From positions 1 through 43,000 of the forward strand of contig JAMPIG010000021.1 of NCBI GenBank assembly GCA_023662875.1: DNA of 43,000 bases, in the 5' to 3' direction. Made by a program: the position numbers and the translations under genes. This DNA is from Roseburia sp. (GTDB lineage: Bacteria > Bacillota > Clostridia > Lachnospirales > Lachnospiraceae). Each line of letters starts with the position of its first letter. The stretch's first letter is position 1. Below are positions 10,006 through 42,075 of this stretch, piece by piece. Under the pieces are notes generated by a model. That model did no database searches and was not told the origin of the DNA. It saw only the letters and a program-made list of their open reading frames with translations.

Positions 10006-10854
10006 TTACCCCGTCAGCGGCTTTAACACTCGTTCAAAGATCGTGTAATTCCTTTGATCCCGAGGGCTGCAATAAACGGCGAATTCTATATTTCGGAATG
10101 CTTTTAAGTACCCGGCGATCACATTCCCGGCGGCCCGTGCGACGATTTCCGGATCATTGGAGAAAGCGCCGCAGCCGAAGGCACCTAAAATGACTGACTC
10201 GACATTCTGCAGAAGAGCCGCATCCAGAATCCTTTTCAGTCTTTTTTCGTGGAGCGCCAAAAGCTGGTCGTCTTCCAGGAAGGCGCGCTTATCCCCGTCG
10301 CCGGAATTGTAGGGGTTGCCGGGGCGCTGTCTCAGATTAGGAGCGGCACAGGTGATAACGTCAACGGCGTACCAGTCCTTTTCCGCCATGAGCTCAGGAT
10401 CCTCGGTGTCCGTCTTAAATACCGCGACATCCGGCGTAAAAATAATATCATCGTTGTGAATCGGATCCGACGCGCTGCGGTGAGGAGAATAGAAGGCGTC
10501 CCACATCTTGGGGGTATTTAAGCAGAAATACAGGTTGGAGCAACGACACAGACATTCCTCCTGCGCACTTGCGCCACGAACTACCCCGCCGCCGGGGTTG
10601 GTGGCGGACGCGAAATTGAGGACGGCGGTTCTCTGGCCCTTGTATCGCCGGGCCGCCTCCAGGGAGCGTCTGGAGGAAACGGCGACCCTGGCGTCATCCG
10701 CATATCGATTATAAATGAGCCCCGGCAGCGTTTCCGCTTCCGGGATCATTTTTTGCCCGGCAATGGCCCGGTTGGTAGCGCTTAACAGGGTCGGGTTGGT
10801 CTTACATAGTTTTTCAGTGTCGCGGAAAATCTGTATGTTTTTTGTGTGATTCAT
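10006..10854 (-). CDS. Bacterial-type poly(ADP-ribose) glycohydrolase (TIGR02452 / microbial PARG family)
   Basis: A 282-aa protein. Residues 88-100 read GGGVVRGASAQEE, the PARG signature (GGG, seven residues, QEE), with the tandem glutamates that hydrolyse the ribose-ribose bond of ADP-ribose chains. The fold is a macro domain: TAVLNFASATNPGGG, YAVDVITCAAPNLR, and VILGAFGCGAFSNDP, the last being the usual substrate-binding loop. Start ATG 10854 (minus strand) follows GAGGG; an in-frame ATG at 10983 would add 43 residues encoded by an imperfect tandem repeat and is rejected. It is probably co-transcribed with the metallophosphoesterase gene upstream on the same strand. Role is likely reversal of ADP-ribosylation. 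Confidence 0.88.
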   Translation of the reverse strand: MNHTKNIQIFRDTEKLCKTNPTLLSATNRAIAGQKMIPEAETLPGLIYNRYADDARVAVSSRRSLEAARRYKGQRTAVLNFASATNPGGGVVRGASAQEECLCRCSNLYFCLNTPKMWDAFYSPHRSASDPIHNDDIIFTPDVAVFKTDTEDPELMAEKDWYAVDVITCAAPNLRQRPGNPYNSGDGDKRAFLEDDQLLALHEKRLKRILDAALLQNVESVILGAFGCGAFSNDPEIVARAAGNVIAGYLKAFRNIEFAVYCSPRDQRNYTIFERVLKPLTG

Positions 10855-10880
10855 TTTTCCCTCATTTCTGCGTTGGTTCC

Positions 10881-10978
10881 TGCGTGTGTTTTTTCGGAAT
10901 TCTTTTTCGGCAGGGAACATTGCCCGCTGCGTATGCTTTCCGAAATCTTTTTGACAGGAAACATTTGCCCGTTGTGTA
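10881..10978. repeat. Imperfect ~47-bp tandem duplication in the leader of the PARG gene
   Basis: Two diverged copies start at about 10881 and 10928; each carries a TTTCGGAAT/TTCCGAAAT block, CTTTTT, CAGG(G/A)AACAT and TGCCCG(C/T)TG. A third partial start is at about 10973. The unit stays open in the frame of the PARG gene, which explains the artificial N-terminal extension. Confidence 0.55.
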
Positions 10979-10979
10979 A

Positions 10980-11927
10980 TCACGGTGTGGACGGCGGCGT
11001 CTGCCCTGTTGTCTCAGTCAGCTTTTCATGCAGCTTTTGAATCATTCGCAGCTCCTGAGGCGAATACTGATCCTTTTCCCCTTCGATTTCGGAAGCGTGC
11101 GGATTTTCCAGGATCTTTTCCAGGACGCCTTCAAAACCGTGGGCGTGGTCTCCGTCGGAAAATTTGTAGAAAAGGCCGTCCTGAATCAATTCGCTGACCC
11201 GATAGAGCAGGTCGCCGTCCGCATCTTCGCAATCCTGCGGGTTCTCAGAGACAGTTCCGTCATATCCGTCCATGATTTCCTGCGGGTTCTTAAAGGCGGT
11301 TCCGCCATACCCGCCCATGATTTCCTGCGGGTTTTCAGGAGCAATCCTGTCATATCCGTCCATGATTTCCTGCAGGCTTCTCGGCGTATAGCCTATAACC
11401 TCTTTCATACATCCCACATTGTAGGCCCGGACGGTCTGTCCGTCGCTATGCCGGAAATATTGTGCGGCGTCCATGCTGTGGAGAGCTTGCTGAAAATAGA
11501 AGTCCTCGGCGCTGTTGTGGGTATGGCCGTACAGGAGGATTGCTGCCTGTGCCATCTTATTCCAGCTGAAAACAGGATAGTGGCAGAGTACAAGCTTGTA
11601 ACTGTTTCCATCGGCCCGATCCTGAATTTCTTTATAATCGCAGATCTCCGCAAACAGCTGCTTATATCGGTAATCGGAAATATCGTCATGGTTTCCCTTT
11701 ATAAGAATCTTTTTTCCCTTCAGCCTTGCGACGAGAGAGATCAGCTCCTCGTTCTTTCCGCGCATACTCAGGTCTCCCAGAATGTACACGGTATCGCCGT
11801 TGGTGACAGTGCGGTTCCAGCTCGCCAGGATTGTATTGTGCATCTCCTCCAGCGAAGAAAACGGGCGGTTGTCAAAGCGTATGGAGGCTTCGTGAAATAA
11901 ATGAAGATCGCTGATATAATAATTCAA
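10980..11927 (-). CDS. Calcineurin-like metallophosphoesterase with internal 15-aa repeats
   Basis: A 315-aa protein with all metallophosphoesterase motifs: YYISDLHLFHEAS, YILGDLSMRG, IKGNHDDIS, LCHYPVFSW and LYGHTHNS. The start is a TTG at 11925-11927 (minus strand) because AAGGGAGGG lies 7 nt upstream and the domain begins at once with NYYISDLH. Residues ~185-235 hold three tandem ~15-aa units of type NPQEIMDGYDGTVSE (45-bp DNA repeat), followed by an acidic helical tail. The catalytic part is the same subfamily as the 175-aa gene at 20961. Substrate unknown; close coupling to PARG suggests nucleotide or ADP-ribose-related phosphate chemistry, which is inference. Confidence 0.85.
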   Translation of the reverse strand: MNYYISDLHLFHEASIRFDNRPFSSLEEMHNTILASWNRTVTNGDTVYILGDLSMRGKNEELISLVARLKGKKILIKGNHDDISDYRYKQLFAEICDYKEIQDRADGNSYKLVLCHYPVFSWNKMAQAAILLYGHTHNSAEDFYFQQALHSMDAAQYFRHSDGQTVRAYNVGCMKEVIGYTPRSLQEIMDGYDRIAPENPQEIMGGYGGTAFKNPQEIMDGYDGTVSENPQDCEDADGDLLYRVSELIQDGLFYKFSDGDHAHGFEGVLEKILENPHASEIEGEKDQYSPQELRMIQKLHEKLTETTGQTPPSTP

Positions 11928-11990
11928 AGGCTTACCCTCCCTTCGTAAAACGATACTCGCAAGCACGCGCTTGATTTTTCCCTGGCGTCC

Positions 11991-12020: not shown

Positions 12021-12161
12021 CCAGATATCGGATTCTTTTTCAGCGCTCTTTTCCGGCTGGCAGGGGGCGGAGAGTAAAAGCGGTATAGCAGAATCCGACG
12101 TTTGATGGAGAAAAGGGCGGAGCTTTGGTGTAAGATCGATAATGGAACAGGGGGGAAGGCC

Positions 12162-12926
12162 ATGGCGGGGAGGATATTTGTCACGGGAGATTGCCACGGA
12201 GATTTCCGAAGATTTAATATGGCTTCGTTTCCGGAGCAGAAGGAGCTGGATCGGGATGACTATATGATTATCTGCGGTGATTTCGGCGGGATCTGGAATA
12301 GAGAGGAGAGCCGCGAGGAGGAATACTGGCTTGACTGGCTCGACAGGAAGAGCTACACGACGCTTTTTGTGGACGGAAACCACGAGAATTTTGACCGGCT
12401 CAATTCCTACCCTGTCAGGGAGTGGAAGGGCGGCAGGGTACATGAAATCAGGCCTTCCCTGCTTCACCTCATGCGCGGGCAGATATTTTGCTTGGGCGGA
12501 AAGAGCTTCTTTACGTTTGGAGGAGCCAGCAGCCACGATATAGCCGGGGGGATTCTGGAGCCCGAGGATCCGGACTTTCGGGGAAAGAAAAGGCGGCTCG
12601 ACCAGGAAGGGGCTCTTTACCGGGTCAGACATATCAGCTGGTGGGAGGAAGAGCTGGCGGACGAGCGGGAGATGGAGGAGGGAAGGGAGAACCTGGAGAA
12701 AGCGGGATACCGGGTGGATTATATTATCACGCATTGCTGCGCCACGGGCACACAGGAGGAGTTGGGCGGAAGGGGTCTGTACGATGCGGATCGGGAGACG
12801 GATTATCTGGAGTACATCAGAAATCACACTGCGTTTACCCGATGGTTTTTCGGACATTATCATATGGATGGTATGGTAAACGACCGGGAAGTATTGCTTT
12901 ATGAGCAGATAGTAGAGGCGGATTAA
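12162..12926 (+). CDS. Calcineurin-like metallophosphoesterase
   Basis: A 254-aa protein. Motifs in order: IFVTGDCHGDFRRF, MIICGDFGGIW, FVDGNHENFDRL, a long insert with SFFTFGGASSHD and a charged helix, then YIITHCCATG and WFFGHYHMDGM. All metal-binding residues of the superfamily are present. The GNHENFDRL block and the GGASSHDI insert define a subfamily often labelled simply metallophosphoesterase; substrate unknown. ATG 12162 has GGGGGAAGG just upstream. The next gene starts 51 bp after the stop, so the two are probably co-transcribed. Diverges from the metallophosphoesterase-PARG pair. Confidence 0.85.
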   Translation: MAGRIFVTGDCHGDFRRFNMASFPEQKELDRDDYMIICGDFGGIWNREESREEEYWLDWLDRKSYTTLFVDGNHENFDRLNSYPVREWKGGRVHEIRPSLLHLMRGQIFCLGGKSFFTFGGASSHDIAGGILEPEDPDFRGKKRRLDQEGALYRVRHISWWEEELADEREMEEGRENLEKAGYRVDYIITHCCATGTQEELGGRGLYDADRETDYLEYIRNHTAFTRWFFGHYHMDGMVNDREVLLYEQIVEAD

Positions 12927-12946
12927 TGTTGTTTAAGCGTTTAGTG

Positions 12947-12960
12947 CCCGCTGAAGCGGG
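12947..12960 (+). promoter_or_regulatory. Short hairpin directly before a ribosome binding site
   Basis: CCCGCT (12947-12952) and AGCGGG (12955-12960) form a 6-bp stem with a GA dinucleotide between them, so the top pairs probably open. It ends 3 nt before AAGGAGG (12964-12970) of the 243-aa gene. Similar hairpins precede the ribosome site at 6609-6626 and stand at 14291-14310. Confidence 0.55.
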
Positions 12961-12976
12961 AGTAAGGAGGAAAAGT

Positions 12977-13708
12977 ATGAATTTAAAAGAAGCGTACCGC
13001 TATGCAAATTTTCTGAACGAACTGCTGGAGCGTTCCTATGCGCTGCTGGGGGATCCGAACGTTGTCACGACGGTGAAGCAGAAGCACTTTCGTTCCAAAG
13101 CGGTAAAGGAAGCGGAGGACGAAACGATGGTGGCGGAAAAGCCCTTTAACGAGAATTTTACGCCGATGATCCTGGTGGATTTCGCCGTGGAGGCGCTGGC
13201 GGAAAAGGAAGCTTTAGCTAAAGCGATCGCAGAGGCCAAGGCGGGCGTGGAAATCAATATTGACGACGCCGTTTTCATGAACAAGAAAAAGCAGCAGTTT
13301 GTACGGGTGCTGAAAAATATGGCGGACAGAAAGGCGAGCGTCAGGAATATCACGGGCAGAGGCTACCGCTTTAACGTGAACAACGAGCAGGTTTCCTATG
13401 TGTACGATATCGAAGAGACCGTCACGATTGACTACGATCGCGTTGATGTCAGGAATCTGATCAAAAAGTACCGCAGGGAGACGGATGAAATATCCGCAAA
13501 GCTGGATCAGATCGAGATCCTGACGGAGGTTGACTTTACGCCGAAGTGGGATGTGAACGACAGCCTGGGCGTCATTCTGGATATCGAAGGACTGGATTCG
13601 TATCAGGGATCTGACGCATACCAGAATACAGGCGCGCCTGCTCCCCGCACCGGGGGCGGACGGGAGTCCGGGGTGCAGGCGCTGCTGAGAGCGGCGGGGA
13701 AATATTAG
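12977..13708 (+). CDS. Conserved-looking protein of unknown function (243 aa)
   Basis: Not recognised. Strong start: AAGGAGG 6 nt before ATG 12977. The sequence looks soluble, charged and mixed alpha/beta: N-terminal helix NLKEAYRYANFLNELLERSY, a Lys-rich KQKHFRSKAVKEAEDE segment, an Ala/Glu/Lys helix (EALAEKEALAKAIAEAKAG), then MNKKKQQFVRVLKNMADRKASVRNITGRGYRFNVNNEQVSY, an acidic strand region with TVTIDYDRVDVRNLIKKYRRETDEISAKLDQIEI, and a flexible Gly/Pro tail. No membrane segment or catalytic motif is evident. It follows a metallophosphoesterase by 51 bp and ends at a strong hairpin, so the two form a unit. Confidence 0.75.
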   Translation: MNLKEAYRYANFLNELLERSYALLGDPNVVTTVKQKHFRSKAVKEAEDETMVAEKPFNENFTPMILVDFAVEALAEKEALAKAIAEAKAGVEINIDDAVFMNKKKQQFVRVLKNMADRKASVRNITGRGYRFNVNNEQVSYVYDIEETVTIDYDRVDVRNLIKKYRRETDEISAKLDQIEILTEVDFTPKWDVNDSLGVILDIEGLDSYQGSDAYQNTGAPAPRTGGGRESGVQALLRAAGKY

Positions 13709-14615: not shown

Positions 14616-14879
14616 ATGACTATGATGACTATGTTTGCGCACATTTTTGCAAATCTGGATTGGAAGACGATCGCCGTTCTTATAGGGCTTGCCATATTGG
14701 TCTATGGACTGTTTCTCGGTCCGAAGCGCAAGGATTACGATAAGAAGGAAAAGAGCGAGATAAGGCATGACCTCCGGAAAGCGGAAGGCGGGAAGGATTA
14801 TATCTACAAGGGCAGCGGTATGTACAGGGATTCTAAGGGCAATGTAAAAAACGAGCAGTCAACGAATAAGAAAAAATAG
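14616..14879 (+). CDS. Small single-pass membrane protein of unknown function (87 aa)
   Basis: GGAGG lies about 12 nt upstream of ATG 14616. One membrane helix (about residues 18-35: KTIAVLIGLAILVYGLFLG) is followed by a highly charged cytoplasmic-looking tail rich in Lys/Asp/Glu with GKDYIYKGSGMYRDSKGNVKNEQ. No known family recognised. It is bounded by its own promoter elements and a clear terminator, so it is probably monocistronic. Confidence 0.75.
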   Translation: MTMMTMFAHIFANLDWKTIAVLIGLAILVYGLFLGPKRKDYDKKEKSEIRHDLRKAEGGKDYIYKGSGMYRDSKGNVKNEQSTNKKK

Positions 14880-14915: not shown

Positions 14916-14959
14916 ACCCTGCCAGAGTTTGGCGAAGACCAAACTTTGACAGGGTTTTT
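14916..14959 (+). terminator. Rho-independent terminator after the 87-aa gene
   Basis: ACCCTGCCAGAGTTTGG (14916-14932) pairs with CCAAACTTTGACAGGGT (14939-14955) with two mismatches; loop CGAAGA. Followed by TTTTT. It isolates the small gene from the STAND operon downstream. Confidence 0.85.
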
Positions 14960-15075: not shown

Positions 15076-16341
15076 ATGACCGTTGCGGAGAAGTTTGAGC
15101 GATTGATGAGCATTATCGAATATTGGACGGGAAATGTGACGGAGACGGATCGATATGCGGGTCCTTTCCGATATTTGAGGGAGGAGCTGTGGCTGCGGGA
15201 GATATGCGTTGTCCCCGGCGTCAGCGTCAGCATCGCGCAGCTCAAGACCTTTCTGGCTTCCGCGGTTCTGGAAATCTATCCCTGGCGGAACGGTTCCAAA
15301 ATTTCCTACCGTGATATCCAAAAATACCTGGCCGGAGAGGAGCATTGCAAAAAGTACTCTTTTTTCTTCGGGGAGCTGGAGAAGTGCTTTTCCCGGGAGG
15401 AGAATGGAAGGGCTGCCGAAAGGACTCAGCTATGCGGGAGGAGCGCCGGGCTTATGGGAGATCCGGAGGAGAAGGGAAGCGTCTCTCTGTATCTGCTGGA
15501 GAAGCTTCAGACAATGGCCCGGATCAAAATTGGCGAGTATTGGCGCATGTGCGATCCGGATGGTGCGATACCGGAGGCCGGGGCGGGCGAAACGATAAAA
15601 TGGAAGCAGAAAGCGGTGCCGCTCCCGAAGGAAACGGACGAGGGAAAATCGGAGCGGGATGAGGAGGATGAGATATCGGCCCGGAAGCAGAACAAGTATA
15701 TGGAGTGTCTGCTGACAATCGCTCTCCATGAGATTTTTGTGAGGGAATGCGAACGACAGTACGGGCTGCGGCGGGCGGAGGCCGATGTGAGGCAAAGCAG
15801 CGTCGGGGAGCTGCGGGAGCTGCTGGAAAGCCTTGTGGATGCGCTGGCGCAGGAGAGCGGGGCGGAGGCCCGAACCTGTGTGGAAAGCGCGGAGGAAAGG
15901 GTACAGGGGGTGATCGAATATACACAGCGGCTGTCGAAGATGGTTTCCCTTTTGAATTCCTATGTGGAGCATGTGGTCGGTGTGGAGGCGGAGATAATAC
16001 TCGTCATGATTCTGGAGGCGAGGAATCTGGCGGACATAAAGAATGACGCGGATCTGTGGCAGCAGATGACAGAGTATCTGGAATGTATGCGGGACAGGTG
16101 TACGGAAAATTTTGTGCGATATAATAAAAACAGGGGAAGGCACTACCGGCAGCTGGAGGATGACGTCGAGCGATTTTTCCTGCGTTATATGAGGCAGACC
16201 GGCTTCGCGGGAAAGCAAAGCTTCGCCGGGGCGATGCGCGCTTATCTGGAGATTGCGGAGAGAGGAAGGCCTGACGGGGAAGGCCGGAGGAGACTGTGGG
16301 AGGTGCAGTGCGTTCTGGTGATGCCTCTGTGGCAAGGTTAA
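15076..16341 (+). CDS. Unrecognised 421-aa protein, first gene of the STAND operon
   Basis: ATG 15076 is preceded by GGGAGGGAG at good spacing. No known domain recognised. The sequence appears soluble and mainly alpha-helical. Residues ~1-115 contain aromatic-rich blocks (EYWTGNVTETDRYAGPFRYL; AVLEIYPWRNGSKISYRDIQKYL), and ~120-215 include a charged, probably disordered linker (KETDEGKSERDEEDEISARKQ). Residues ~215-421 are long amphipathic helices that may form a coiled coil or helical bundle (LRELLESLVDALAQES; ERVQGVIEYTQRLSKMVSLLNSY; FFLRYMRQTGF). It ends 104 bp before the STAND gene with no terminator between. A partner, adaptor or effector for the STAND protein is the natural hypothesis, by position only. 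Confidence 0.75.
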   Translation: MTVAEKFERLMSIIEYWTGNVTETDRYAGPFRYLREELWLREICVVPGVSVSIAQLKTFLASAVLEIYPWRNGSKISYRDIQKYLAGEEHCKKYSFFFGELEKCFSREENGRAAERTQLCGRSAGLMGDPEEKGSVSLYLLEKLQTMARIKIGEYWRMCDPDGAIPEAGAGETIKWKQKAVPLPKETDEGKSERDEEDEISARKQNKYMECLLTIALHEIFVRECERQYGLRRAEADVRQSSVGELRELLESLVDALAQESGAEARTCVESAEERVQGVIEYTQRLSKMVSLLNSYVEHVVGVEAEIILVMILEARNLADIKNDADLWQQMTEYLECMRDRCTENFVRYNKNRGRHYRQLEDDVERFFLRYMRQTGFAGKQSFAGAMRAYLEIAERGRPDGEGRRRLWEVQCVLVMPLWQG

Positions 16342-16344
16342 TGT

Positions 16345-16430
16345 ATTCAGCGCCCTCCGGGAGAGCGGGTACATAGCGTAGGGAAAACGGTTGGAAGGCC
16401 GATACATTCAGCGTTCTCCGGGAGAGCGGA
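16345..16430 (+). repeat. Duplicated ~25-bp hairpin motif between the 421-aa and STAND genes
   Basis: ATTCAGCG, two variable bases, then CTCCGGGAGAGCGG occurs at about 16345-16368 and again at 16406-16429. Each copy can fold around CTC/GAG and CGC/GCG arms. The second copy ends about 5 nt before the GAAGGAG ribosome site of the STAND gene. It resembles the pre-ribosome-site hairpins elsewhere in the window. Confidence 0.6.
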
Positions 16431-16445
16431 CGAAGGAGTAAAAAG

Positions 16446-19400
16446 ATGAAGATTTTGGAGTACAGGCAGGAAGAACTGTGTTATATGTGGAAGGACAGGC
16501 AGGTTCGGATGGAACGGGAGGATCTTTGGGGCAGCCCGGAGGAAAACAGGGGCTCCATCCTGGGCTATTGCAGGGATTTTTCGGAGGAGGAAGAGGACGA
16601 TAACGCTCATGTGGTTTACTATTACGGCCAGGGGGGAATCGGAAAGTCCTTTGTGTGCGGCGAGATCGCCCGAAGGCTTTCGGAGGTGCCGTACGAGGAT
16701 CGGCTGTATGTGGTCGCGGTGGATTTGCAGAGGCAGAAGAGCTTTGAGGATAATCTGAAGTGTCTGGCGGAGGGTATTGAGGAGCAGCTGGGCGGGAAGG
16801 AATCGTTTCCCAGATTTCAGATGGCATACTATAATTATAAAATGAAAAAGGGAGAGGAGGCTCAGCAGGAGGAGCGCTCTACAAAGTGGGACAGGCTGCA
16901 GGATAACGATTCCTTCGGTCTGGCGGCAGGCGTGGCGGGCTTTCTGACGTCCTTCGGAACCGTCAGCGACGTGATCGGTCTGGCTAACGACGGGTATAAG
17001 TGGTTCCTCAAGATGAGGGATAATGTGAAATACAAGGCTCTGGCGCATCGGCTCGAGGCGATGGGCGAGAAGGAGCTCAAAAACGAGCTGGTCAGGTATT
17101 TTGCGGCGGATTTCCGGGAGAATGTGGAGGCCCGGAAGGAGGTTAAAAAGAAGAAGAAAAAATTTGCGTTTCTGCTGGATACGGTGGAGAGTATGCGGTA
17201 TCAGGCGCTGCGCAGGGGAGACGACGAGGACTATCTGGAGTGGCTGGCCGGGAGCGACGGGCTGTTTCGGCTGCTGCCCGGGTGCTTCTGGCTGCTGTTC
17301 GGGCGGGAGGAGATTTCGTGGAGAGATTATGACAGGGAGTGGGAGGTTTCCTTCGTCTCAAAAGAGTTTGAGAAGCCGCAGGAGACGGCGGTTCGGGATT
17401 ATCTGCGGCGGCTGTTGTGTCCGGGGGGTATGGAGAGAGGCAGTGGGGCAGGGGATGAGCGGCCCGCTATTATCGAAGAAATCATCCGGCAGACGGAAGG
17501 GTATTCCCTGGGAATCGAAAACTGCGTCGATGTGTATTTCCGTATCTGGAATCGGAATCTGAGGACGAACCGGGTCGCGGACGAGAATGCGGCAGATCGG
17601 TACAGGCCGTCGCTGGAGGAGATGAGGGAGGTGCTGGCGGGGGGAAGCGGCAGCAAGCTGGTCTCCGCCCGCTTCCTGCAGTATTACACCCTTCAGGAGA
17701 GGGAGGTGCTTTATACTCTGGTCTGTCTGGGGACATGGACGGACGATATTCTGGAAAATGTGATCTGGCGGGGAATGTCGAACAATATTTTGATCTATGA
17801 GGAAATGTGCTCTACCTCCTTTATCCATACCTCAGGAGACGGCGTGAGAAGCATTCAGGGGCTGATGCTGGACGCCGTCATGGAGGACTGCGCCCCGAGG
17901 CTGAAAAAGAGGCTGCTGACCGTTATCCTGCAGGCGATGAAGGACAGGAGTCCGGACGAAATCTATTGGCTGCTCTTCCACTCGGCGATCCATACGGCCG
18001 GATTCTGTCAGCGGGATGTAAAGACCTGCGGGCAGCTGGGAGAACAGCTTGTCCGGGCGGCGGAAAGGATGTCGCAGGGCACGGAATTCGGCGAGCTGTC
18101 GGAGATCTGCGGCGGGCTCTTAAAAGTAGGGGGCGGGGCGGACGAGGATCTCTATAACGCAGCCGGGATCGGGGCGTATTTTGCGGGCGTGCTGCGGAAA
18201 AAGGATGTCGCGGAGACGCTGGCGCTGCTGCGCGGCCGGGAGCGGTTCGGAGCTTACAGCCTGCAGGTATGGAGGCTGCTGCAGCGGACGGCCTGGTACG
18301 CGGGCTGCTTCGGGGAGGCTTATGAGATAACGGAGCTCCTGGAGGAGCGCCTGGCGGGAGGGCCCGCGGACGTCGAGTATTACGGGCTTCTCCGCCAGAA
18401 GGCGGAGCTGATGCAGCGGCTCCCGGAGCGCTTTGAGAGCGGGCAGATGGAACAGGAGCTGGAGCGTGTCTGCAGTCTTGCGCAGGAGTTGTCGCCCGCG
18501 AAGCCCGAGGTGGCGGAGAAGCTGAATATGCGGCTCTGGGCGGAGTATCATTATAACAGGCGGGAGCTCTGGGGAGAGATCGCCTCCCGGAGGATCGGGG
18601 AATGCATCGAGAGATACCGCGCCTGCTGTACGAGGGAGGAAGCGGAGGAGGATGCGGGTCTGTGCGTGATGGAGATCATGCGGGAGCGCGCCAAGGGAAA
18701 ATTCTGGCTGGATGTGGCGAACGAATGGGCCTTAAAGGGGCTGCGGATTCTGGAGCGGCTTTACGGAGAACGGGCGGCGGAGCAGTCGGATATGAGCTTT
18801 TTGTTTTACTCCGTCCTCACAGGCGTACCGATGACGAAGGATGACAGGGAGCTGTACCGGGAGCTTTTTGAGGAGTACTATAAGGCTTTTTATAAGGGCG
18901 GGAGCTGGGACGTATTTCCCCTGTTGAATCATGCCTGCGTCGGCAGAAAGTATCGCGCCGGGGAGGATAGCGCCGAGAACGGGATGGAGAGGGTAGAGCT
19001 GGCTGACATCCTCGGGCAGGGTATCCTGTATCTTTCCAATCTCAGCAAAAACAGCCAGCAGAATCAGCTGAGGCTTTTATTGAGCTATTATCTCCGCGGC
19101 GAGTCGGAGCAGGATCAGGTCAGTCTGTACGACGACGGCGGCGAGGTCAATACCCGCATTCAGTGCGCTATCGGGAACAACAGGGTTCTCCTGTTCTTCC
19201 TGCAGAAACTGTTAGAGGAGCTGTGCCCGGAGAAGGAAGGCGCGGAGAAGGAAGGCCGGGAAACGAAGGGCGAGGAGCAGGGAAGCCGGGAGATGAGAGG
19301 CGCGGAGTCAGAAGGCCGGACAATGGAAGGTCGGGAGAAGGAAAGTGCGGGGTCGGAAGATCGGACAATGAAAGGCTCGGAGTCGGAAGACCGGGAGAAG

Positions 19401-20903
19401 AGAGGCGCGGAACAGGAAGAGACAAGGAGAAAAATCAGGGTGCTTTTACAGGCGGTCTTCGCGGACAGGCCGTTCTCGGACGCTCATTTTACGGCGGAGG
19501 AAAAGCGGCAGCTTCTGAGCCTTCTGAGAATCTGCGGGCTGGATACTGGCCGGGCGGAGTGGAGAGCGGAGTACACAGACAGCGCGGAGGGAGAGGAATT
19601 TAGGATTCTGGGAGCCCTCCGGGGCTGGGTGTGGAAGCTGGATTCCCGGGCGGATATTCAGATGGCGGCGACTCTGCTTTACGCGGCCTGGCGGCTGGAG
19701 GAGCCGTCCCTGGAGAAGCGTCTGTTGGAGCTGCTGGAGGAGCGGTTCCCGGATGGAAACAAAAGGATATCCTTCTGGTTTGCCCTGAGGCGGGAGGCGC
19801 AGACGGAGGGCGGCGAGTGGGAGAGCCGCTGCGAGGAATTACTCCGGGAAGCGATCGGGAAGGAGGATCCGGGAAAGAACGGGCAGAAATTCTCCGTAAG
19901 AACCAGAGCGCTGATGCGTCCCTATAGGCCGGAGCTGGAAGAGCGGTTGGACAGCGGCTCTCCTGAATTGGAGGAAAGCGGCGGTGACGGGAAGGCCGCC
20001 GGGAACGGATGGCAGGACAGCTATGAGACGGAATTGCAGGACAGGCTGGCGGCGGGGGACTTTGACGCCATGCGCGGCATGATCCAGGAGGTTCTGAACG
20101 GATTCAAGCCCTCTGCTCCGGACGATCGGTTTGCCGTGGCGCACTTTTATGTGCCTGCGCTGAAAAAGAGAGGGCTGGACGGCTTTTTGGATGGCATACA
20201 GGATCTGGCGCAGCAGCGCTCCTTCCTGGGAGGAGAATACTTTATCCTGCGGGCCTATGCGTACCTGGACGACAGGGAGGGCTTTACCGCTTATTACCGG
20301 GAAAACCGCGAGGCAATCTGGGAACGGCTGAAAAGCTCGTACACGCTTGCGCTCTATCCGGAGCAGGAGCTTTTCCGGACGGCGGATTATGTTTTCCGGA
20401 CAGGAGAGGGCTGGCTGGCGGAGGATTACTGCGGCAGACTGGCGGATTTATACGGATCTTCCGCTTATGGGGGAGCTAACAATTATGGAAAGAGGATTCT
20501 TCGGCGGTTGGGCTGGCTTACGAGCCATGTGCCGGTTCAGACGGTCTGGCGGCGAGAGCTGTTTACGGAGGCGCTGACCCTTTCCAACTATGAGGAGATG
20601 TACGGCCTGGCGGAAAAATATCTGGAGCGGTCGGAGCTGCTGGACTGCTTTGCGGACTGGGGACGCCGGATTTGGAAGCAGCTTTGCGATTATCCGAAGC
20701 TTGTGGACTTTAGCTTCTTTGAGAGCGAGTATTATAGATGGATGACGGAAAGGTTCGGAGAGGCGTTTCAGGAGCGCATGGAGAGGGAACAGCCGGATTT
20801 GTACGCCGCGAAAAGAGAATTTGAGGAATGCTTCCAAAAGGAGTATGTGCATCTGGTCAACAGCGCGGTTTGCAGGATCCGAAGCCTGACGGACAGGATG
20901 TGA
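16446..20903 (+). CDS. Large STAND-type (NLR-like) P-loop NTPase with long helical C-terminus, 1485 aa
   Basis: Start ATG 16446 with GAAGGAG 6-12 nt upstream. After ~55 N-terminal residues comes Walker A (YYGQGGIGKSF, ~residues 58-69), then VVAVDLQRQKSFEDN, a long insert with a small hydrophobic patch (FGLAAGVAGFLTSFGTVSDVIGLAND), Walker B (KFAFLLDTVESM, ~238-249) and a sensor-like GCFWLLFGREE (~279-289). A winged-helix-like region (LQEREVLYTLVCLGTWTDDILENVI) follows. Residues ~400-1485 are helical repeats without a clean TPR consensus, broken by a low-complexity Glu/Lys/Arg/Gly tract (~925-993). This is the layout of signal-transducing STAND ATPases, many of which are defence or conflict sensors. 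No N-terminal effector domain is fused; an effector may be the 421-aa neighbour. Identity beyond STAND-like is inference. Confidence 0.8.
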   Translation: MKILEYRQEELCYMWKDRQVRMEREDLWGSPEENRGSILGYCRDFSEEEEDDNAHVVYYYGQGGIGKSFVCGEIARRLSEVPYEDRLYVVAVDLQRQKSFEDNLKCLAEGIEEQLGGKESFPRFQMAYYNYKMKKGEEAQQEERSTKWDRLQDNDSFGLAAGVAGFLTSFGTVSDVIGLANDGYKWFLKMRDNVKYKALAHRLEAMGEKELKNELVRYFAADFRENVEARKEVKKKKKKFAFLLDTVESMRYQALRRGDDEDYLEWLAGSDGLFRLLPGCFWLLFGREEISWRDYDREWEVSFVSKEFEKPQETAVRDYLRRLLCPGGMERGSGAGDERPAIIEEIIRQTEGYSLGIENCVDVYFRIWNRNLRTNRVADENAADRYRPSLEEMREVLAGGSGSKLVSARFLQYYTLQEREVLYTLVCLGTWTDDILENVIWRGMSNNILIYEEMCSTSFIHTSGDGVRSIQGLMLDAVMEDCAPRLKKRLLTVILQAMKDRSPDEIYWLLFHSAIHTAGFCQRDVKTCGQLGEQLVRAAERMSQGTEFGELSEICGGLLKVGGGADEDLYNAAGIGAYFAGVLRKKDVAETLALLRGRERFGAYSLQVWRLLQRTAWYAGCFGEAYEITELLEERLAGGPADVEYYGLLRQKAELMQRLPERFESGQMEQELERVCSLAQELSPAKPEVAEKLNMRLWAEYHYNRRELWGEIASRRIGECIERYRACCTREEAEEDAGLCVMEIMRERAKGKFWLDVANEWALKGLRILERLYGERAAEQSDMSFLFYSVLTGVPMTKDDRELYRELFEEYYKAFYKGGSWDVFPLLNHACVGRKYRAGEDSAENGMERVELADILGQGILYLSNLSKNSQQNQLRLLLSYYLRGESEQDQVSLYDDGGEVNTRIQCAIGNNRVLLFFLQKLLEELCPEKEGAEKEGRETKGEEQGSREMRGAESEGRTMEGREKESAGSEDRTMKGSESEDREKRGAEQEETRRKIRVLLQAVFADRPFSDAHFTAEEKRQLLSLLRICGLDTGRAEWRAEYTDSAEGEEFRILGALRGWVWKLDSRADIQMAATLLYAAWRLEEPSLEKRLLELLEERFPDGNKRISFWFALRREAQTEGGEWESRCEELLREAIGKEDPGKNGQKFSVRTRALMRPYRPELEERLDSGSPELEESGGDGKAAGNGWQDSYETELQDRLAAGDFDAMRGMIQEVLNGFKPSAPDDRFAVAHFYVPALKKRGLDGFLDGIQDLAQQRSFLGGEYFILRAYAYLDDREGFTAYYRENREAIWERLKSSYTLALYPEQELFRTADYVFRTGEGWLAEDYCGRLADLYGSSAYGGANNYGKRILRRLGWLTSHVPVQTVWRRELFTEALTLSNYEEMYGLAEKYLERSELLDCFADWGRRIWKQLCDYPKLVDFSFFESEYYRWMTERFGEAFQERMEREQPDLYAAKREFEECFQKEYVHLVNSAVCRIRSLTDRM

Positions 20904-20960
20904 GCCATTTGGCTCCATATGGATATTCTGGAGGAGTACCGGGAAAGAATCGGGTGAGGA

Positions 20961-21488
20961 ATGAAGTACTATATCGCGGATACGCATTTTGGGCACAGAA
21001 GTGTGCTGACCTTTGACAATCGGCCGTTTTCGGATGTGGAGGAGATGGATCGGGAGATGATCCGCTATTGGAACGCGACGGTGAGAGAGGAGGACGAGGT
21101 ATATATCGCGGGAGATTTCGCTTATCGCAACGAGCGTCCTGAGGAATGGTATCTGTCGCAGCTGAAAGGAAGGAAGTATTTAATCATCGGCAATCATGAC
21201 AAGAGGCTTTTGCAAAATGAGAAGGCGATGGGATATTTTGAAGCGGCGGATAAGATGATGCATGTGTCCGACGAAGGGCATCAGATTTGCGTCTGTCATT
21301 TCCCGCTGGCGGAATGGAACGGGTTCTACCGGGGCGCTCTGCATATCTACGGACATATTCACGGCAGGCAGGACGAGACCTGGAGATTCATGAGGACGAG
21401 GCGTGGAGCGTACAACGCGGGCTGTATGCTCCACGGTTACCGGCCGGTTACCCTGCGGGAGCTGCTCAGGCAGCCGACGGATTCCTGA
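20961..21488 (+). CDS. Small calcineurin-like metallophosphoesterase
   Basis: A 175-aa single-domain enzyme with YYIADTHFGHRSV, VYIAGDFAYR, LIIGNHDKR, VCHFPLAEW and IYGHIHGR: all metal ligands present. By eye it is the same subfamily as the catalytic part of the 10980-11927 gene (shared TFDNRPFS-(D/S)-(V/L)-EEM block). Starts 57 bp after the STAND stop and is followed 30 bp later by another metallophosphoesterase, so it is part of the same operon. Candidate substrates are nucleotides or small phosphodiesters; unknown. Confidence 0.88.
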   Translation: MKYYIADTHFGHRSVLTFDNRPFSDVEEMDREMIRYWNATVREEDEVYIAGDFAYRNERPEEWYLSQLKGRKYLIIGNHDKRLLQNEKAMGYFEAADKMMHVSDEGHQICVCHFPLAEWNGFYRGALHIYGHIHGRQDETWRFMRTRRGAYNAGCMLHGYRPVTLRELLRQPTDS

Positions 21489-21518
21489 CGAAGAGTGCCA
21501 AGAGAGAGGAGTTTTGCG

Positions 21519-22517
21519 GTGAATTATGTGATAGGAGACGTACACGGGTGTTATCATGCGCTGATGCGGCTGCTGGAGAGGCTGCGTCTCACGGAAGAGG
21601 ACAGGGTTTATTTTGTGGGGGATTTTGTGGATCGGGCACCGGATCACGGGCAGATGCTGATGACAAACCGGTGGGTCTGCGAGCATATCACGGAGGACGG
21701 CCCGTTTCAGGCAGTGCTGGGAAATCATGATCTGGATCTGCTGGATACCTATCAGGAGCTTTCCGGCTATGAGGGAACCCCCGCGTTTTCCTTTCTGATT
21801 GACCGGGATACCTATGGAAGCCTTGGCGATATCACGAAAAAGATCCGGACGCTGCCCTTGTTCCGGAGGGTGGAGGCGGGAGGATTTACGAATATCATAA
21901 CGCATTCCTGGCTGTGCGACGAGGCCGGGCGCAGCGCGATAGCGGAGGACGGCAGCGTCAGGGAGGATTACAGTATCCGGGAGTCGCTGTGGGACAGAGA
22001 GCATTCCATAAAGGATATTCCCGGCAGCTGCCGGGTCATACACGGTCATACCATTACCTCCAGCAGCTGCTACGGGGAGAAACGGCGGGGAGCGCAGAGT
22101 AAGATTCTGTTTCAGGGAGCCGCCAATGTAAATGTGGATTGCGGGTGCTTTATGGGGCTGGCAAACGGCGGAAACCTGGCGGCCTTCCGGCTGGAGGACG
22201 GGGCTGCGTTTTACGCGTATGACCTTGAGGACGCCGTTGCGGTATATGAAGAGCTTGCGCAGCTGTCGCAGGAACCGTATGCCCTGAGGGATTATCAGAT
22301 TTTTCTGGCGTGCAATCCTCTGCGGGAACAGGTTTTTCTGTACGACGATTCCGATTACGTCAGGTACGCCTTAAATGCGTTTGAAAAGGAACAGAAGGTC
22401 GCTTTTTCCGACCGGGAAGCGTTTTTTGAGCGATGCCGGAAACGCATTTACTGGTGGAAGGCCTGTATAAGAAGGAACCGTAGGATTGACAGCAGATTTA
22501 TCGTCTGGAGCGAGTGA
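21519..22517 (+). CDS. PPP-like serine/threonine phosphatase or Ap4A-hydrolase-type metallophosphoesterase
   Basis: A 332-aa protein. GTG 21519 is chosen because GAGGAG lies 7 nt upstream and the domain begins at once: YVIGDVHGCYHALMRLLERL, VYFVGDFVDRAPDHG, VLGNHDLDLLD, NIITHSWLCDE, RVIHGHTIT. The GDVHG/GDFVDR/GNHD set is that of PPP phosphatases and ApaH/PrpE-type hydrolases. The C-terminal ~110 residues form an additional region (NVDCGCFMGLANGGNLAAFRLEDG, then an aromatic/charged tail). It is the last gene of the operon; a terminator follows at once. Confidence 0.85.
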   Translation: MNYVIGDVHGCYHALMRLLERLRLTEEDRVYFVGDFVDRAPDHGQMLMTNRWVCEHITEDGPFQAVLGNHDLDLLDTYQELSGYEGTPAFSFLIDRDTYGSLGDITKKIRTLPLFRRVEAGGFTNIITHSWLCDEAGRSAIAEDGSVREDYSIRESLWDREHSIKDIPGSCRVIHGHTITSSSCYGEKRRGAQSKILFQGAANVNVDCGCFMGLANGGNLAAFRLEDGAAFYAYDLEDAVAVYEELAQLSQEPYALRDYQIFLACNPLREQVFLYDDSDYVRYALNAFEKEQKVAFSDREAFFERCRKRIYWWKACIRRNRRIDSRFIVWSE

Positions 22518-22524
22518 AAAAAAT

Positions 22525-22560
22525 AAACATCAGGGTCTTGACAGGCTCTGATGTTTGTTT
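22525..22560 (+). terminator. Terminator of the STAND/metallophosphoesterase operon
   Basis: AAACATCAG (22525-22533) pairs with CTGATGTTT (22548-22556), followed by GTTTTAT. It physically overlaps the -35 box of the next promoter (22538-22543), which sits in the hairpin loop region. Confidence 0.65.
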
Positions 22561-22566
22561 TATACT
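22538..22566 (+). promoter_or_regulatory. Sigma-A promoter of the GntR/ABC operon
   Basis: Perfect TTGACA (22538-22543), 17-nt spacer, TATACT (22561-22566). It is embedded in the terminator of the upstream operon and directly followed by an operator. Confidence 0.85.
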
Positions 22567-24009: not shown

Positions 24010-26467
24010 GGTATTGCAGGAGGATCTTCGACATAAGATATGGATGCTGGCCCTTTCCGTCCTGGGAAGTCTGCTGACGCTTCCTGTGAGCTATCTGATT
24101 TACAGCGGCGAGAGAAGCCAATATCTGCAGTATGCGCCGGGGAATACTGCTTTGCAGGCGCTCCAGGAGACAGCCTTCCGGATCGAGGGCTTTTACGGGG
24201 CGACCATCTGCTTCGGTGCCGGGGCGGTGGCGGTGCTGGGGGCTGTCATCGTCGGGCTCTTCGGTTTTCGGTATGTTTTCCAGCGGAATATGACGGATCT
24301 CTATCACAGCCTGCCGGTGAGCCGGAGGACGATGTTCCTGGCGGGGTGGCTGAGCGGTTTCCTGATCTGGTTTGTGCCGTATCTGATCAGCCTGGCGGTG
24401 ACGGTGCTTTTGGGGGAGTATAAGCTGGCGGAGCTGAAAAAGCAGGCGCAGCAGTATGGAAATCTGTCCTGGGAGACCTGGCCTGATGGAAGCGGGATTC
24501 TGATGAACTCTCTGATTTCCAGCCTGGCGATCCTGACGGCCTTCCTGCTGGTCTATCATCTGGTTCTGCTGGCGGTGATGCTTTGCGGAAATATTCTGAA
24601 CACGCTGACGGTAGCCGGGATTCTTGGCGCGGGCTCCGTGGTCGCCTGGGTCATTTTCACCCTGCTCCGGGAGACTTATCTGGATACGTTTTCGGGTCTC
24701 TGGGGAGTAGAGTTTCGGTGGGTCTCCTATACCGCGCCGCTGATTTCCGCGGTCTGCGTACTGTATCAGAGGGTCGAGTCCTTTTTATATGAGCAATCCG
24801 CTTTACCCGGGTGGGACGGATTTCTCTCCGGAAGAATTTTGATCGGTCTTCTGACGGCGATTGGTCTGGGATTCCTGGCTTATTTGATCTATCTGCGGAG
24901 ACGGTCGGAGCTGGCGGATCAGGGAACGGCGGGGAAGGCGTTTCGGCTGATTCTGCAGACGGCGGTCTCCTTGGCGGCGTTTTGCGGCGGGTGGATGCTG
25001 TTCTGGTATTTTGCTCCTTACAGCGGAGGCGCGCAGCTGGTTTGGAGTATTTTCGGCGGAATTCTGGTCGGCGGGGTCGTCTTCGGGGTACTGGACGTTA
25101 TCTTCAATATGGATTTTAAGGCCTTTTTCAGCCATAAGGGACTGATGGCCGGGGTGCTGGCGGCGGGGCTGTTCGCTGGATTTTGCTTCACGTTTGACTG
25201 GCTGGGGGTAGACGTGTATCTGCCGGAGAAGGAAGAGATTGCGGAAATCGCCGTCAATGCGGACTTTCTCGGCAGCAGGTTGGTTTACAGCGACTCGGGG
25301 ATACTGGAGGAGATTCATATCCGGGACGGGGAAGCGGCTTACGCCTTCCTGGAGAAAGCGGTTGCCGGTCAGAGGGAAGCAGGCGGAAGAGGGCTGTCCG
25401 CCTACGATACTTATGTATACTCCGCCTACAACAGCGATTATGAATATATCGAGACAAAGGTCACATTGAAAAGCGGCAGGAGCTATTATCGAAATTACCG
25501 GATTTACGCGGGAGACAGCGAACCGCTCTATGCGCTGGTTATGGAGCCGGAGTATCTGGAGAGCCGCTATCGGATCAGCGACAGGGCCAGAGACGCCTTT
25601 TCGGAAATTTCGCTGCGGCGCGGCAATATTGCCTACGAGCCGAGCAGGCTGACGAAGGAGGACGAACAGCGGATTCGGCTGATCTGCGACGCCTACAACC
25701 GGGATCTGGAGGAAAATCCGGGGGCGGTCGTCCGGGGAGAGGGCAGGATGCTCGCAAGGATTTATCTGAGCGGTCTGCAGGGGAATTTTCAGATTGCGGT
25801 TTACGAGGGAATGAGCCATACCAGGGAAGCCCTGCGGCAGGCAAACCTCGGATATTACGCGGATCCGGCAGCGGCGGAGGAGGTTGGCGCGATTGTTCTG
25901 ACGACGAATCTTTCGCTCCGAAGGCTGGAGGAAGAAGACGATCTGGCGGAGTATATAAGGGAGCTCTACGGTTTGACCGTTCCGGCGGACGAGAATTCGG
26001 AGCATCCGGGAGCGATAGGCGAGGCAGCGGAGACTTGGAATCCGGAGAATCCGACCCGCGAGACGGAGGATGTCCCTGCGGGGGAGAGCTGGAATCAGCA
26101 GGATCCGGACAGCCAGGCGGAGAAGGATCTCGCAGCGGAGAGCTGGGAATTTCAGAATCCGTCCGCTCAGACAGATGATCTCCCGGCGGCGCAAACTGTG
26201 AGGGATCTCTCGGTCATGGACGGGAATCTGGAGCTGGAAATAACGGATCCCGGGGAGATCGCGGAGTTGCTGGAGCTGCTTTCCTACGGCTCTAACCGGT
26301 GCGGCTATCTGTTCGGCGGGCCGGAGCAGCTTTACAGCCGGGTCAGGATTCTGGAAAAGAACGGGAATCAGTATGACGTCTGTATTTCCGGCGGCGCGCT
26401 GCCGGAGAAATATATCGAGAGATTTATGCAGGCCGCGGAGGAGCTTCTGGGGCAGGGGAATCCCTGA
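23984..26467 (+). CDS. ABC-2-type permease with large extracytoplasmic C-terminal region
   Basis: An 827-aa protein. ATG 23984 follows GGAGGTGA with 8-nt spacing. The first ~410 residues contain about eight membrane segments (LALSVLGSLLTLPVSYLIY; CFGAGAVAVLGAVIVGLFGF; GWLSGFLIWFVPYLISLAV and others), with the NMTDLYHSLPVSRRTMF loop typical of this family. The rest is soluble and probably extracytoplasmic. Residues ~680-740 hold three ~18-aa tandem repeats (ETWNPENPTRETEDVPAG-like, with Trp-Asn/Glu and Asp-Leu-Pro/Ala positions), then a conserved-looking end domain. The C-terminal half resembles DUF6449-type extensions; that name is from memory. Confidence 0.88.
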   Translation: MTSRRCFFRVLQEDLRHKIWMLALSVLGSLLTLPVSYLIYSGERSQYLQYAPGNTALQALQETAFRIEGFYGATICFGAGAVAVLGAVIVGLFGFRYVFQRNMTDLYHSLPVSRRTMFLAGWLSGFLIWFVPYLISLAVTVLLGEYKLAELKKQAQQYGNLSWETWPDGSGILMNSLISSLAILTAFLLVYHLVLLAVMLCGNILNTLTVAGILGAGSVVAWVIFTLLRETYLDTFSGLWGVEFRWVSYTAPLISAVCVLYQRVESFLYEQSALPGWDGFLSGRILIGLLTAIGLGFLAYLIYLRRRSELADQGTAGKAFRLILQTAVSLAAFCGGWMLFWYFAPYSGGAQLVWSIFGGILVGGVVFGVLDVIFNMDFKAFFSHKGLMAGVLAAGLFAGFCFTFDWLGVDVYLPEKEEIAEIAVNADFLGSRLVYSDSGILEEIHIRDGEAAYAFLEKAVAGQREAGGRGLSAYDTYVYSAYNSDYEYIETKVTLKSGRSYYRNYRIYAGDSEPLYALVMEPEYLESRYRISDRARDAFSEISLRRGNIAYEPSRLTKEDEQRIRLICDAYNRDLEENPGAVVRGEGRMLARIYLSGLQGNFQIAVYEGMSHTREALRQANLGYYADPAAAEEVGAIVLTTNLSLRRLEEEDDLAEYIRELYGLTVPADENSEHPGAIGEAAETWNPENPTRETEDVPAGESWNQQDPDSQAEKDLAAESWEFQNPSAQTDDLPAAQTVRDLSVMDGNLELEITDPGEIAELLELLSYGSNRCGYLFGGPEQLYSRVRILEKNGNQYDVCISGGALPEKYIERFMQAAEELLGQGNP

Positions 26468-26476
26468 GGGGCTCCG

Positions 26477-26705
26477 GGACGGAAAACCGTCGAAGGAAAG
26501 CAAGGAGCTTCAGGACGGAGAACCGTCGAACGAAAGCAAGGGGCTCCGGGACGGAGAAGCGTTGAACGAAAGTAAGGGGCTTCGGAACGGAGAGCCGTCG
26601 AACGAAAGCAAGGAGCTCCGGGACGGAGAGCCGTCGAACGAAAGCAAGAGGCTTCGGGACGGAAAACCGTCGAACGAAAGCAAGGGGCTTCGGGACGGAA
26701 AATTG
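26477..26705 (+). repeat. 36-bp minisatellite, six full units and one partial
   Basis: Units begin GG(A)ACGG at 26477, 26513, 26549, 26585, 26621 and 26657, with a partial one at 26693. Each unit contains a GACGG-4 nt-CCGTC hairpin and ACGAAAGCAAGG. All three forward frames are open through it; the translation LRDGEPSNESKG repeats in one frame but has no start or ribosome site of its own. It lies between the permease stop and the response-regulator gene. Confidence 0.9.
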
Positions 26706-31035: not shown

Positions 31036-31063
31036 TTGACATGACCGCGCAAAGTGATAAAAT
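31036..31063 (+). promoter_or_regulatory. Promoter of the RHS toxin gene
   Basis: Perfect TTGACA (31036-31041), 16-nt spacer, TAAAAT (31058-31063). It lies inside the in-frame upstream extension (ATG 31041), which shows that the true start is at 31134. Confidence 0.75.
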
Positions 31064-31133
31064 AGAATCCGATAAAACAACGAAAGATGATAGATTAATA
31101 TTAAAGAAAAGAGACAATAAAGGAGACAGCAAG

Positions 31134-41225: not shown

Positions 41226-41238
41226 GAAGGACATAACT

Positions 41239-41966: not shown

Positions 41967-42075
41967 CGAAAAAGACTGCGTTGGAGGACTCGGCGAGCAA
42001 TTTTACTTGTGACTGGGACAGCAAATCTAACCGAGACTATTGACGGTAATTGATCTTGGGAAGAGGACGGCGGTT

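What the first reader, a model, noticed from the sequence alone, without database searches (positions are those of the whole stretch)
15076..22517. Four-gene operon: unknown 421-aa protein, 1485-aa STAND NTPase and two metallophosphoesterases
Seen: four co-oriented genes with gaps of 104, 57 and 30 bp, bounded by terminators at 14916-14959 and 22525-22560. The large protein has Walker A (GQGGIGKS), Walker B (FAFLLDTVE), a sensor-like arginine motif and over 1000 residues of helical repeats but no fused effector. Known: STAND/NLR-like ATPases often act as anti-phage or conflict sensors with fused or adjacent effectors. Inferred: the 421-aa protein and/or the phosphoesterases could be the effector or signal-processing parts of an undescribed NLR-like system.
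Basis: partly seen in the sequence, partly recalled or inferred. Interest (0 to 1): 0.78.

Follow-up and report, generated by a model that had tools for sequence, protein, structure and literature searches.

The report
STAND ATPase with new helical partner
A rare gene cluster from gut bacteria pairs a large immune-type switch protein with a previously unnamed helical protein that, in relatives, sits beside several other kinds of molecular machine and sometimes beside restriction or defence genes; it looks like an interchangeable part of bacterial immune systems, but nothing here has been tested in the laboratory.

Summary
The four genes are real. The 1485-aa protein is a STAND ATPase: the Walker A lysine, Walker B D/E and sensor arginine are invariant in 9 of 9 aligned rows, window included. 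The 421-aa protein (p421) matches nothing in Pfam, NCBIfam or PHROGs. I found 12 family genes at 11 intact loci, all in the window's family: 8 of 138 genus genomes (one a fragment), 4 of 397 sampled from the family, own genome only of 398 sampled from the phylum. At the other 9 loci p421 has no STAND beside it: neighbours include TmtA-type/GmrSD, helicase or ParA/AAA/vWA genes, or a restriction island. One relative lost STAND but kept p421. Phosphoesterases lie within 5 kb of p421 at 5 of 11 loci (0.33 expected, P 8.9e-6), yet 14 fetched loci of other MPE1 relatives lack p421. Best reading: p421 is an exchangeable adaptor of NTPase-driven conflict systems. Fold search could not be run.

The parts
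14616..14879 (+). 87-aa protein with one predicted membrane helix; conserved gene directly upstream of p421
   Evidence: 65% aa identity over 75 aligned residues to an 80-aa protein upstream of p421 in L066; also found in L067. Hydropathy maximum 2.24. By tblastn against 12 loci only L066 and L067 matched well; the best hit elsewhere had E 0.26, and L055 had none.
14916..14955 (+). terminator-like hairpin between the 87-aa gene and p421
   Evidence: -23.7 kcal/mol followed by TTTTT; a hairpin with a T run sits at the same place in L066.
15076..16341 (+). p421: helical protein of a new family, proposed exchangeable adaptor
   Evidence: No Pfam or NCBIfam match at E <= 1 and no PHROGs match at E <= 0.01. 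Family of 12 genes at 11 intact loci; the two halves of the family align with hhalign probability 99.3, E 3.5e-20 over 335 columns. AlphaFold model pLDDT 73.5, pTM 0.78; helices only, no strand of 3 or more residues.
16446..20903 (+). STAND NTPase, 1485 aa, proposed sensor/switch
   Evidence: K67, D245, E248, R287, G352, W431 invariant in 9 of 9 aligned rows, window included; 63% identical to the L066 relative over residues 1-489 and 44% over 490-1485.
16626..16649 (+). Walker A, GQGGIGKS (residues 61-68)
17163..17189 (+). Walker B, FAFLLDTVE (residues 240-248)
20961..21488 (+). metallophosphoesterase 1 (MPE1, PHROG 547 type), 175 aa
   Evidence: Metallophos E 1.8e-6; phrog_547 E 2e-45; solved relative aq_1665 E 9.7e-11; 83% identical relative beside a p421 fragment in L069; GNHD and GHIH motifs.
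21495..22517 (+). metallophosphoesterase 2 (MPE2), PPP-like (ApaH/NinI type); likely start at 21519
   Evidence: Metallophos E 2e-12; ApaH-type model E 3.2e-17, below its cut-off; phrog_246 NinI-like E 2.8e-28; solved Ap4A hydrolases E 3.4e-8.
22520..22561 (+). terminator-like hairpin after gene 4, overlapped by a promoter-like site
   Evidence: -23.6 kcal/mol; promoter-like site 22538-22566.
10006..11966 (-). context, not claimed as part of the module: PARG-type macrodomain gene (10006-10983) and metallophosphoesterase (10980-11966)
   Evidence: PARG_cat_microb E 2.1e-37; Metallophos E 1.9e-9. A relative of this PARG gene follows p421 in L079 (48.5% identity).
12102..13708 (+). context: metallophosphoesterase (12102-12926) and a 260-aa protein of unknown family (12926-13708)
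   Evidence: Metallophos E 1.3e-11; the 260-aa protein has no match above a cut-off.

Best explanation
This is a conflict module built on p421, a new helical protein that I read as the shared adaptor or regulatory core of several NTPase-driven immune machines in one bacterial family. In this locus its machine is a STAND ATPase: the long C-terminal region would sense an invader signal, ATP binding would drive assembly, and p421 would couple the assembled STAND to an output, perhaps at the membrane through the 87-aa one-helix protein. The phosphoesterases are recurrent accessories, possibly hydrolysing a nucleotide or nucleic acid signal or product. Shown: the STAND catalytic residues, the p421 family, STAND plus p421 plus the small protein together in the window and in one further genome, different NTPase-type neighbours of p421 at other loci, and phosphoesterase enrichment. 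Inferred: sensing, assembly, coupling, membrane output and defence.
For: STAND residues invariant in 9 of 9 aligned rows, with the C-terminal region less conserved than the ATPase (44% against 63%), as expected of a sensor. Full-length close STAND copies occur in 2 of 138 genus genomes (the window's own and G552), and both loci carry p421 and the small protein; a third close relative, G466, is seen only from about residue 450 on and that genome has no p421. p421 relatives sit next to a TmtA-type protein with weak HATPase and NOV_C matches (L071, PADLOC E 1.9e-98), near GmrSD (L078, Pfam E 1e-27, next but one gene) and another TmtA-type protein (L078, E 1.4e-104, 7.4 kb away), overlapping a SNF2/DEAD-type helicase (L080, Helicase_C E 3.4e-12), and in a cluster with ParA, an AAA ATPase and a DUF2201 vWA gene (L068/L082); one lies at the edge of a restriction island (L055: type I REase E 9.9e-101, type IV REase E 4.2e-103). 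Phosphoesterases within 5 kb of p421 at 5 of 11 loci, 0.33 expected, P 8.9e-6; without the window 4 of 10, P 1.1e-4. p421 model helical.
Against: No phage, toxicity or binding data. p421 has no effector or adaptor family match. Apart from the window the intact STAND-p421 locus was seen once. 9 of 11 intact p421 loci show no STAND, and L067 kept p421 after deletion of STAND. Two genus genomes (G490, G523) have 24-26% identical STAND relatives and no p421. At 7 of 11 loci (window, L066, L067, L068, L070, L077, L079) no strong defence match was found, but coverage was partial: L067 was not scanned by PADLOC or Pfam, L070 by Pfam only, L077 one gene only. L077 lies by genes that look like clpC and radA (my reading of the ORFs). 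Each kind of NTPase partner rests on one or two loci. The constant partner could equally be an effector. No background rate of defence genes was measured.
Confidence: 0.42

Rival explanations
1. p421 is the effector: a helical toxin or membrane- or nucleic-acid-acting protein held inactive until STAND, or another NTPase elsewhere, oligomerises it.
For: It is the gene next to an effector-less STAND. A weakly related STAND on a Priestia plasmid has an annotated HEPN protein in the same position. Two glutamates (E219, E314) are invariant in 12 of 12 family members.
Against: The HEPN R-x4-6-H motif (recalled) is not visible as a conserved feature of the p421 alignment and p421 is not similar to the Priestia HEPN protein (BLASTP E 1.2). 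Effectors are usually the variable part of such systems, whereas p421 is the constant part here. An effector left without STAND in L055 or L067 would need another activator.
Confidence: 0.22
2. p421 is an inhibitor, immunity-like or antitoxin partner that keeps different NTPase machines off.
For: It persists without STAND (L055, L067): dN/dS 0.14 between L066 and L067, amino-acid changes on the two branches 9 against 7 with 28 unresolved, as orphan immunity genes might.
Against: Usual antitoxins are small and specific (general knowledge); one 400-aa family serving several unlike machines would be unusual.
Confidence: 0.12
3. A non-immune stress or signalling operon: STAND regulator, p421 scaffold, and phosphoesterases that process nucleotides or phosphoproteins.
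For: STAND proteins also act as transcription and signalling switches (recalled). PARG and NADAR genes sit by some of these phosphoesterases, a nucleotide-modification theme. At least one p421 locus lies in ordinary surroundings (L077).
Against: Patchy presence (8 of 138 genus genomes) and strong restriction/defence matches at 4 of 11 loci.
Confidence: 0.15
4. Chance neighbourhood: p421, STAND and phosphoesterases merely share a variable region.
For: 14 of 14 fetched loci of other MPE1 relatives have no p421; gene order differs between window and L066; the intact STAND-p421 pair was seen in only one genome besides the window.
Against: In that genome p421 and the small protein are again in the STAND locus; phosphoesterase enrichment P 8.9e-6, or 1.1e-4 without the window.
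Confidence: 0.09

Closest known systems
STAND NTPases with TPR-type repeats (L016, 1210 aa; Priestia plasmid NZ_CP026738 HEPN plus TPR-STAND pair)
   Same: Same ATPase core: Walker A/B, GR sensor, conserved tryptophan W431; Priestia also has a two-gene layout with a roughly 400-aa upstream partner.
   Different: 20-25% identity to the window STAND in the N-terminal alignment; the Priestia protein is annotated as tetratricopeptide, no repeat is recognised here; the partner in Priestia is annotated HEPN, and p421 is not similar to it.
Avs/bNACHT anti-phage STAND proteins (recalled; PMC12169576 seen in a listing only)
   Same: An effector-less STAND switch with a large C-terminal region is compatible with that design.
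   Different: No PADLOC 2.0.0 STAND-defence model matches at E <= 1 (that the library holds Avs models is recalled); no fused effector; separate helical partner.
[quoted passage not shown]
   Same: A variable multi-gene conflict locus with exchangeable effectors; calcineurin-type phosphoesterases are listed there as effectors; a DUF2201 vWA gene and a weak MoxR-like AAA occur about 7-10 kb from p421 in L082.
   Different: The window has an active STAND, and no MoxR or vWA was found among the 19 window proteins scanned; p421 matches no Pfam family.
Metallophosphoesterases of PHROG 547 and ApaH/NinI type
   Same: MPE1 and MPE2 are ordinary members by sequence.
   Different: Only their placement beside p421 is unusual.

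Membership tests
STAND NTPase | Walker A with catalytic lysine | tested here: met
   GQGGIGKS, K67 invariant in 9 of 9 rows
STAND NTPase | Walker B of hhhhD-x-x-[DE] type (form recalled) | tested here: met
   FAFLLDTVE, D245 and E248 invariant in 9 of 9 rows
STAND NTPase | sensor arginine and wHTH after the NTPase core (recalled) | tested here: inconclusive
   GR 286-287 and W431 invariant in 9 of 9 rows; the wHTH fold itself was not modelled
STAND NTPase | curated family score | tested here: not met
   ATPase_2 17.4 bits against a cut-off of 33.2; NPHP3_N 14.8 against 24.8; the family is placed by motifs and relatives, not by a curated model
STAND NTPase | C-terminal helical superstructure (TPR-like) sensor | tested here: inconclusive
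   No Pfam repeat; the structure job for residues 490-1485 was never accepted
Avs / AVAST and other catalogued STAND defence | match to a PADLOC model | tested here: not met
   Only chance-level ZorA3 0.019 and Cas13d 0.039
HEPN RNase (for p421) | R-x4-6-H motif and similarity to a HEPN partner | tested here: not met
   No such conserved motif seen in the 12-row alignment; BLASTP E 1.2 to the Priestia HEPN protein
iSTAND / VMAP ternary system | adjacent MoxR and vWA genes and inactive STAND or VMAP | tested here: not met
   Catalytic residues present; no MoxR or vWA among the 19 window proteins scanned; other window ORFs not scanned
Metallophosphoesterase (MPE1, MPE2) | Metallophos domain above cut-off and metal-binding motifs | tested here: met
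   29.0 and 48.4 bits against 21.5; GNHD in both, GHIH in MPE1, D-x-H in MPE2
Anti-phage defence system | protection against phage | not testable with these tools
   needs cloning and phage challenge

The most novel reading that the evidence does not exclude
p421 founds a new class of immune adaptor: one helical protein on which unrelated NTPase machines (STAND, TmtA-type, SNF2-type helicase, ParA/AAA-vWA) dock in turn, so that a lineage of gut bacteria swaps sensors on a fixed signalling core, with phosphoesterases tuning a nucleotide signal.
Probability: 0.27. Interest if true: 0.75.

Novelty: new variant of a known kind. Interest (0 to 1): 0.52.

Why it matters
STAND switches without a fused effector raise the question of what they switch. 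Here the partner belongs to a family with no match in Pfam, NCBIfam or PHROGs, occurs in few genomes, and recurs beside several different NTPase-type genes and, at some loci, restriction systems. If p421 is a common adaptor it would show that bacterial immune sensors can be exchanged on a shared core, and it gives a small, expressible protein with which to test that.

Tried and rejected
A strictly obligate p421-STAND pair was rejected: no STAND is seen at 9 of 11 intact p421 loci, and the genome of L055 gave no STAND match at E <= 1. In L067 STAND but for its last 80 bp, most of the 321-aa gene and the whole 430-aa gene of L066 are missing between conserved flanks, while the small gene and p421 remain. 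p421 as a HEPN protein was rejected. MPE1 as a dedicated part was rejected (13 fetched stretches plus L072, no p421 in any; stretches reach about 6 kb to either side or to a contig end; in 3 of the 14, L109, L116 and L119, the script's ORF list did not show the MPE itself), but the enrichment was kept. Phage or plasmid origin: 5 scans of viral contigs gave no relative of p421 or STAND; in the phage and plasmid records only the Priestia plasmid STAND (E 2e-3) and a Salmonella phage match to p421 that I take as chance (E 0.8) appeared. Solved structures: nothing I trust for p421 (eS24 E 0.0026; odorant receptor E 0.0015, both taken as chance on helical segments) or for STAND (DnaI E 0.19 and 0.084). 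Of the 11 of 397 family genomes matching STAND, one is the own genome and seven are 55-69-residue hits in frames of 332-355 codons, which I read as DnaI-like and dropped; G348, G086 and G358 were kept. The search of the p421 model against known folds could not be run, so 'new fold' is not claimed. Papers: searches listed no description of such a locus; PMC7159879 was read in passages, PMC12287305 as abstract and outline, the rest in listings only; the library holds open-licence papers and misses most subscription journals.
Full report
OBSERVATION. The four co-oriented genes exist as stated. Gene gaps are 104, 57 and 6 or 30 bp, depending on the start of gene 4; the GTG at 21519 seems to have the better ribosome-binding site. 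Terminator-like hairpins flank the set. The window is a whole 43-kb contig (G000:C65) of a 3.72-Mb genome in 151 contigs, so nothing beyond it can be seen on that contig.

THE LARGE PROTEIN. Pfam and NCBIfam give only weak ATPase matches below their cut-offs, but an alignment with eight relatives (L066, L016, L018, L097, L098, L099, L017 and the Priestia protein) shows K67, D245, E248, R287, G352 and W431 invariant in 9 of 9 rows. I take it as an intact STAND ATPase. Residues 1-489 are 63% and residues 490-1485 44% identical to the closest relative. No second domain is recognised; its repeat nature remains unproven because the structure job for residues 490-1485 was never accepted.

THE 421-AA PROTEIN. 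No match in Pfam or NCBIfam at E <= 1, or in PHROGs at E <= 0.01; PADLOC gives only a chance-level ZorA (E 0.011). One genome-collection scan gave a 52% identical relative (L055). Profile searches then found it in 8 of 138 genomes of the genus (own genome and one fragment, G528, included), 4 of 397 of a family sample (own included, with the 8-row profile), and only the own genome among 398 of a phylum sample. In all there are 12 genes at 11 intact loci: window, L055/L065, L066, L067, L068 (two genes), L070, L071, L077, L078, L079, L080. The two halves of the family align over 335 columns (hhalign probability 99.3, E 3.5e-20). Residues invariant in 12 of 12 include G29, L34, E219, I220, A305, E314, Y390 and P417. 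The AlphaFold model is helical, with a compact N-terminal part and long helices from 193 to 420; mean pLDDT 73.5, pTM 0.78, 38 residues below 50.

WHAT TRAVELS WITH WHAT. In L066 the STAND relative (1396 aa) is followed by 321-aa and 430-aa genes, an 80-aa protein and p421; the 80-aa protein is the relative of the window's 14616-14879 gene. So STAND, p421 and a one-helix protein occur together in the window and in this one further genome, in different order, with a terminator-like hairpin between the small gene and p421 in both. The STAND profile matched 5 of 138 genus genomes: these two; G466, seen only in pieces from about residue 450 on, with an opposite-strand gene where the ATPase should be; and G490 and G523 with 24-26% identical relatives. 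G466, G490 and G523 have no p421 match. In L067 the DNA matches L066 on both sides but STAND (except its last 80 bp), most of the 321-aa gene and the 430-aa gene are missing, while the small gene and p421 stay (89% identical p421, dN/dS 0.14). Amino-acid changes on the two branches are 9 (with STAND) and 7 (without), 28 unresolved: no relaxation is visible, but the loss may be recent.

OTHER NEIGHBOURS. p421 is directly followed by a TmtA-type protein in L071 (PADLOC E 1.9e-98; Pfam NOV_C E 1.3e-4 just over its cut-off, HATPase_c E 0.019 below it). In L078 GmrSD (Pfam E 1e-27) is the next gene but one and a TmtA-type protein (E 1.4e-104) lies 7.4 kb away. A SNF2/DEAD-type helicase overlaps p421 by 4 bp in L080. 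L068/L082 holds ParA (E 1.7e-42) and a phosphoesterase between its two p421 genes and, about 5-10 kb on, an AAA ATPase (E 1.5e-12), a DUF2201 vWA gene (E 2.4e-14) and an AAA gene with a sub-threshold MoxR match. L055 ends a restriction island (type I REase E 9.9e-101 about 9 kb away, type IV REase E 4.2e-103 about 4 kb). At the other loci (window, L066, L067, L068, L070, L077, L079) I have no strong defence match, but L067 was not scanned at all, L070 only by Pfam and L077 by one gene. What TmtA does I do not know; no paper was found. I did not measure how often random genes of these genomes lie near defence genes.

PHOSPHOESTERASES. Metallophos genes number 3 to 18 per genome in the 11 genomes with p421 or its fragment. 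Within 5 kb of p421 they occur at 5 of 11 intact loci (window, G005, G477, G398 twice) against 0.33 expected (P 8.9e-6); leaving out the window, 4 of 10 (P 1.1e-4); within 1.5 kb 3 of 11 (P 2.3e-4). The places were matched by hand, and the model assumes genes spread evenly over rounded genome sizes. Against a dedicated role, 14 of 14 fetched loci of other MPE1 relatives lack p421. MPE1 and MPE2 keep metal-binding motifs.

MECHANISM. [quoted passage not shown] Sensing, assembly and output are inference. Effector (0.22), non-immune signalling (0.15), inhibitor (0.12) and chance (0.09) remain.

NOVELTY. STAND switches and phosphoesterase effectors are known kinds; the p421 family and its change of NTPase partners are not described in what I searched. 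Hence a new variant of a known kind.

Noticed in passing
window 31041-41225: A 3394-aa RHS-repeat protein (36 matched RHS repeat stretches, DUF6531) followed by small ORFs in a stretch of 33% GC (41001-42000), which looks like a polymorphic toxin with its variable tip and immunity gene.
   Followed up: no
window 10006-11966 (-): PARG-type macrodomain gene overlapping a phosphoesterase of the MPE1 kind; L079 has a relative of the PARG gene next to p421, suggesting a link between these phosphoesterases and ADP-ribose chemistry.
   Followed up: partly
L069 1016-4425: p421 fragment, then an ORF with a piece of the window's 260-aa protein ahead of an MPE1 that is 83% identical, then a NADAR gene (DarT1-type antitoxin, E 3.6e-68) and MPE2: a decayed relative of this region.
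   Followed up: partly
L066 6531-7496: 321-aa protein whose start resembles the DUF2201 vWA/metallopeptidase protein and whose end resembles the MoxR-like AAA protein of L082, as if an internal deletion had fused the two genes.
   Followed up: partly
L015 4712-9045 (Priestia megaterium plasmid NZ_CP026738): Two-gene unit annotated HEPN plus tetratricopeptide (STAND) near an annotated restriction endonuclease gene.
   Followed up: no
window 26467-26699: 36-bp tandem repeat, 6.5 copies, directly after the 827-aa membrane protein gene.
   Followed up: no
window 19237-19380: 30- and 45-bp tandem repeats inside the STAND gene encode part of a charged linker (about residues 930-995) that is largely absent from the L066 relative.
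   Followed up: no
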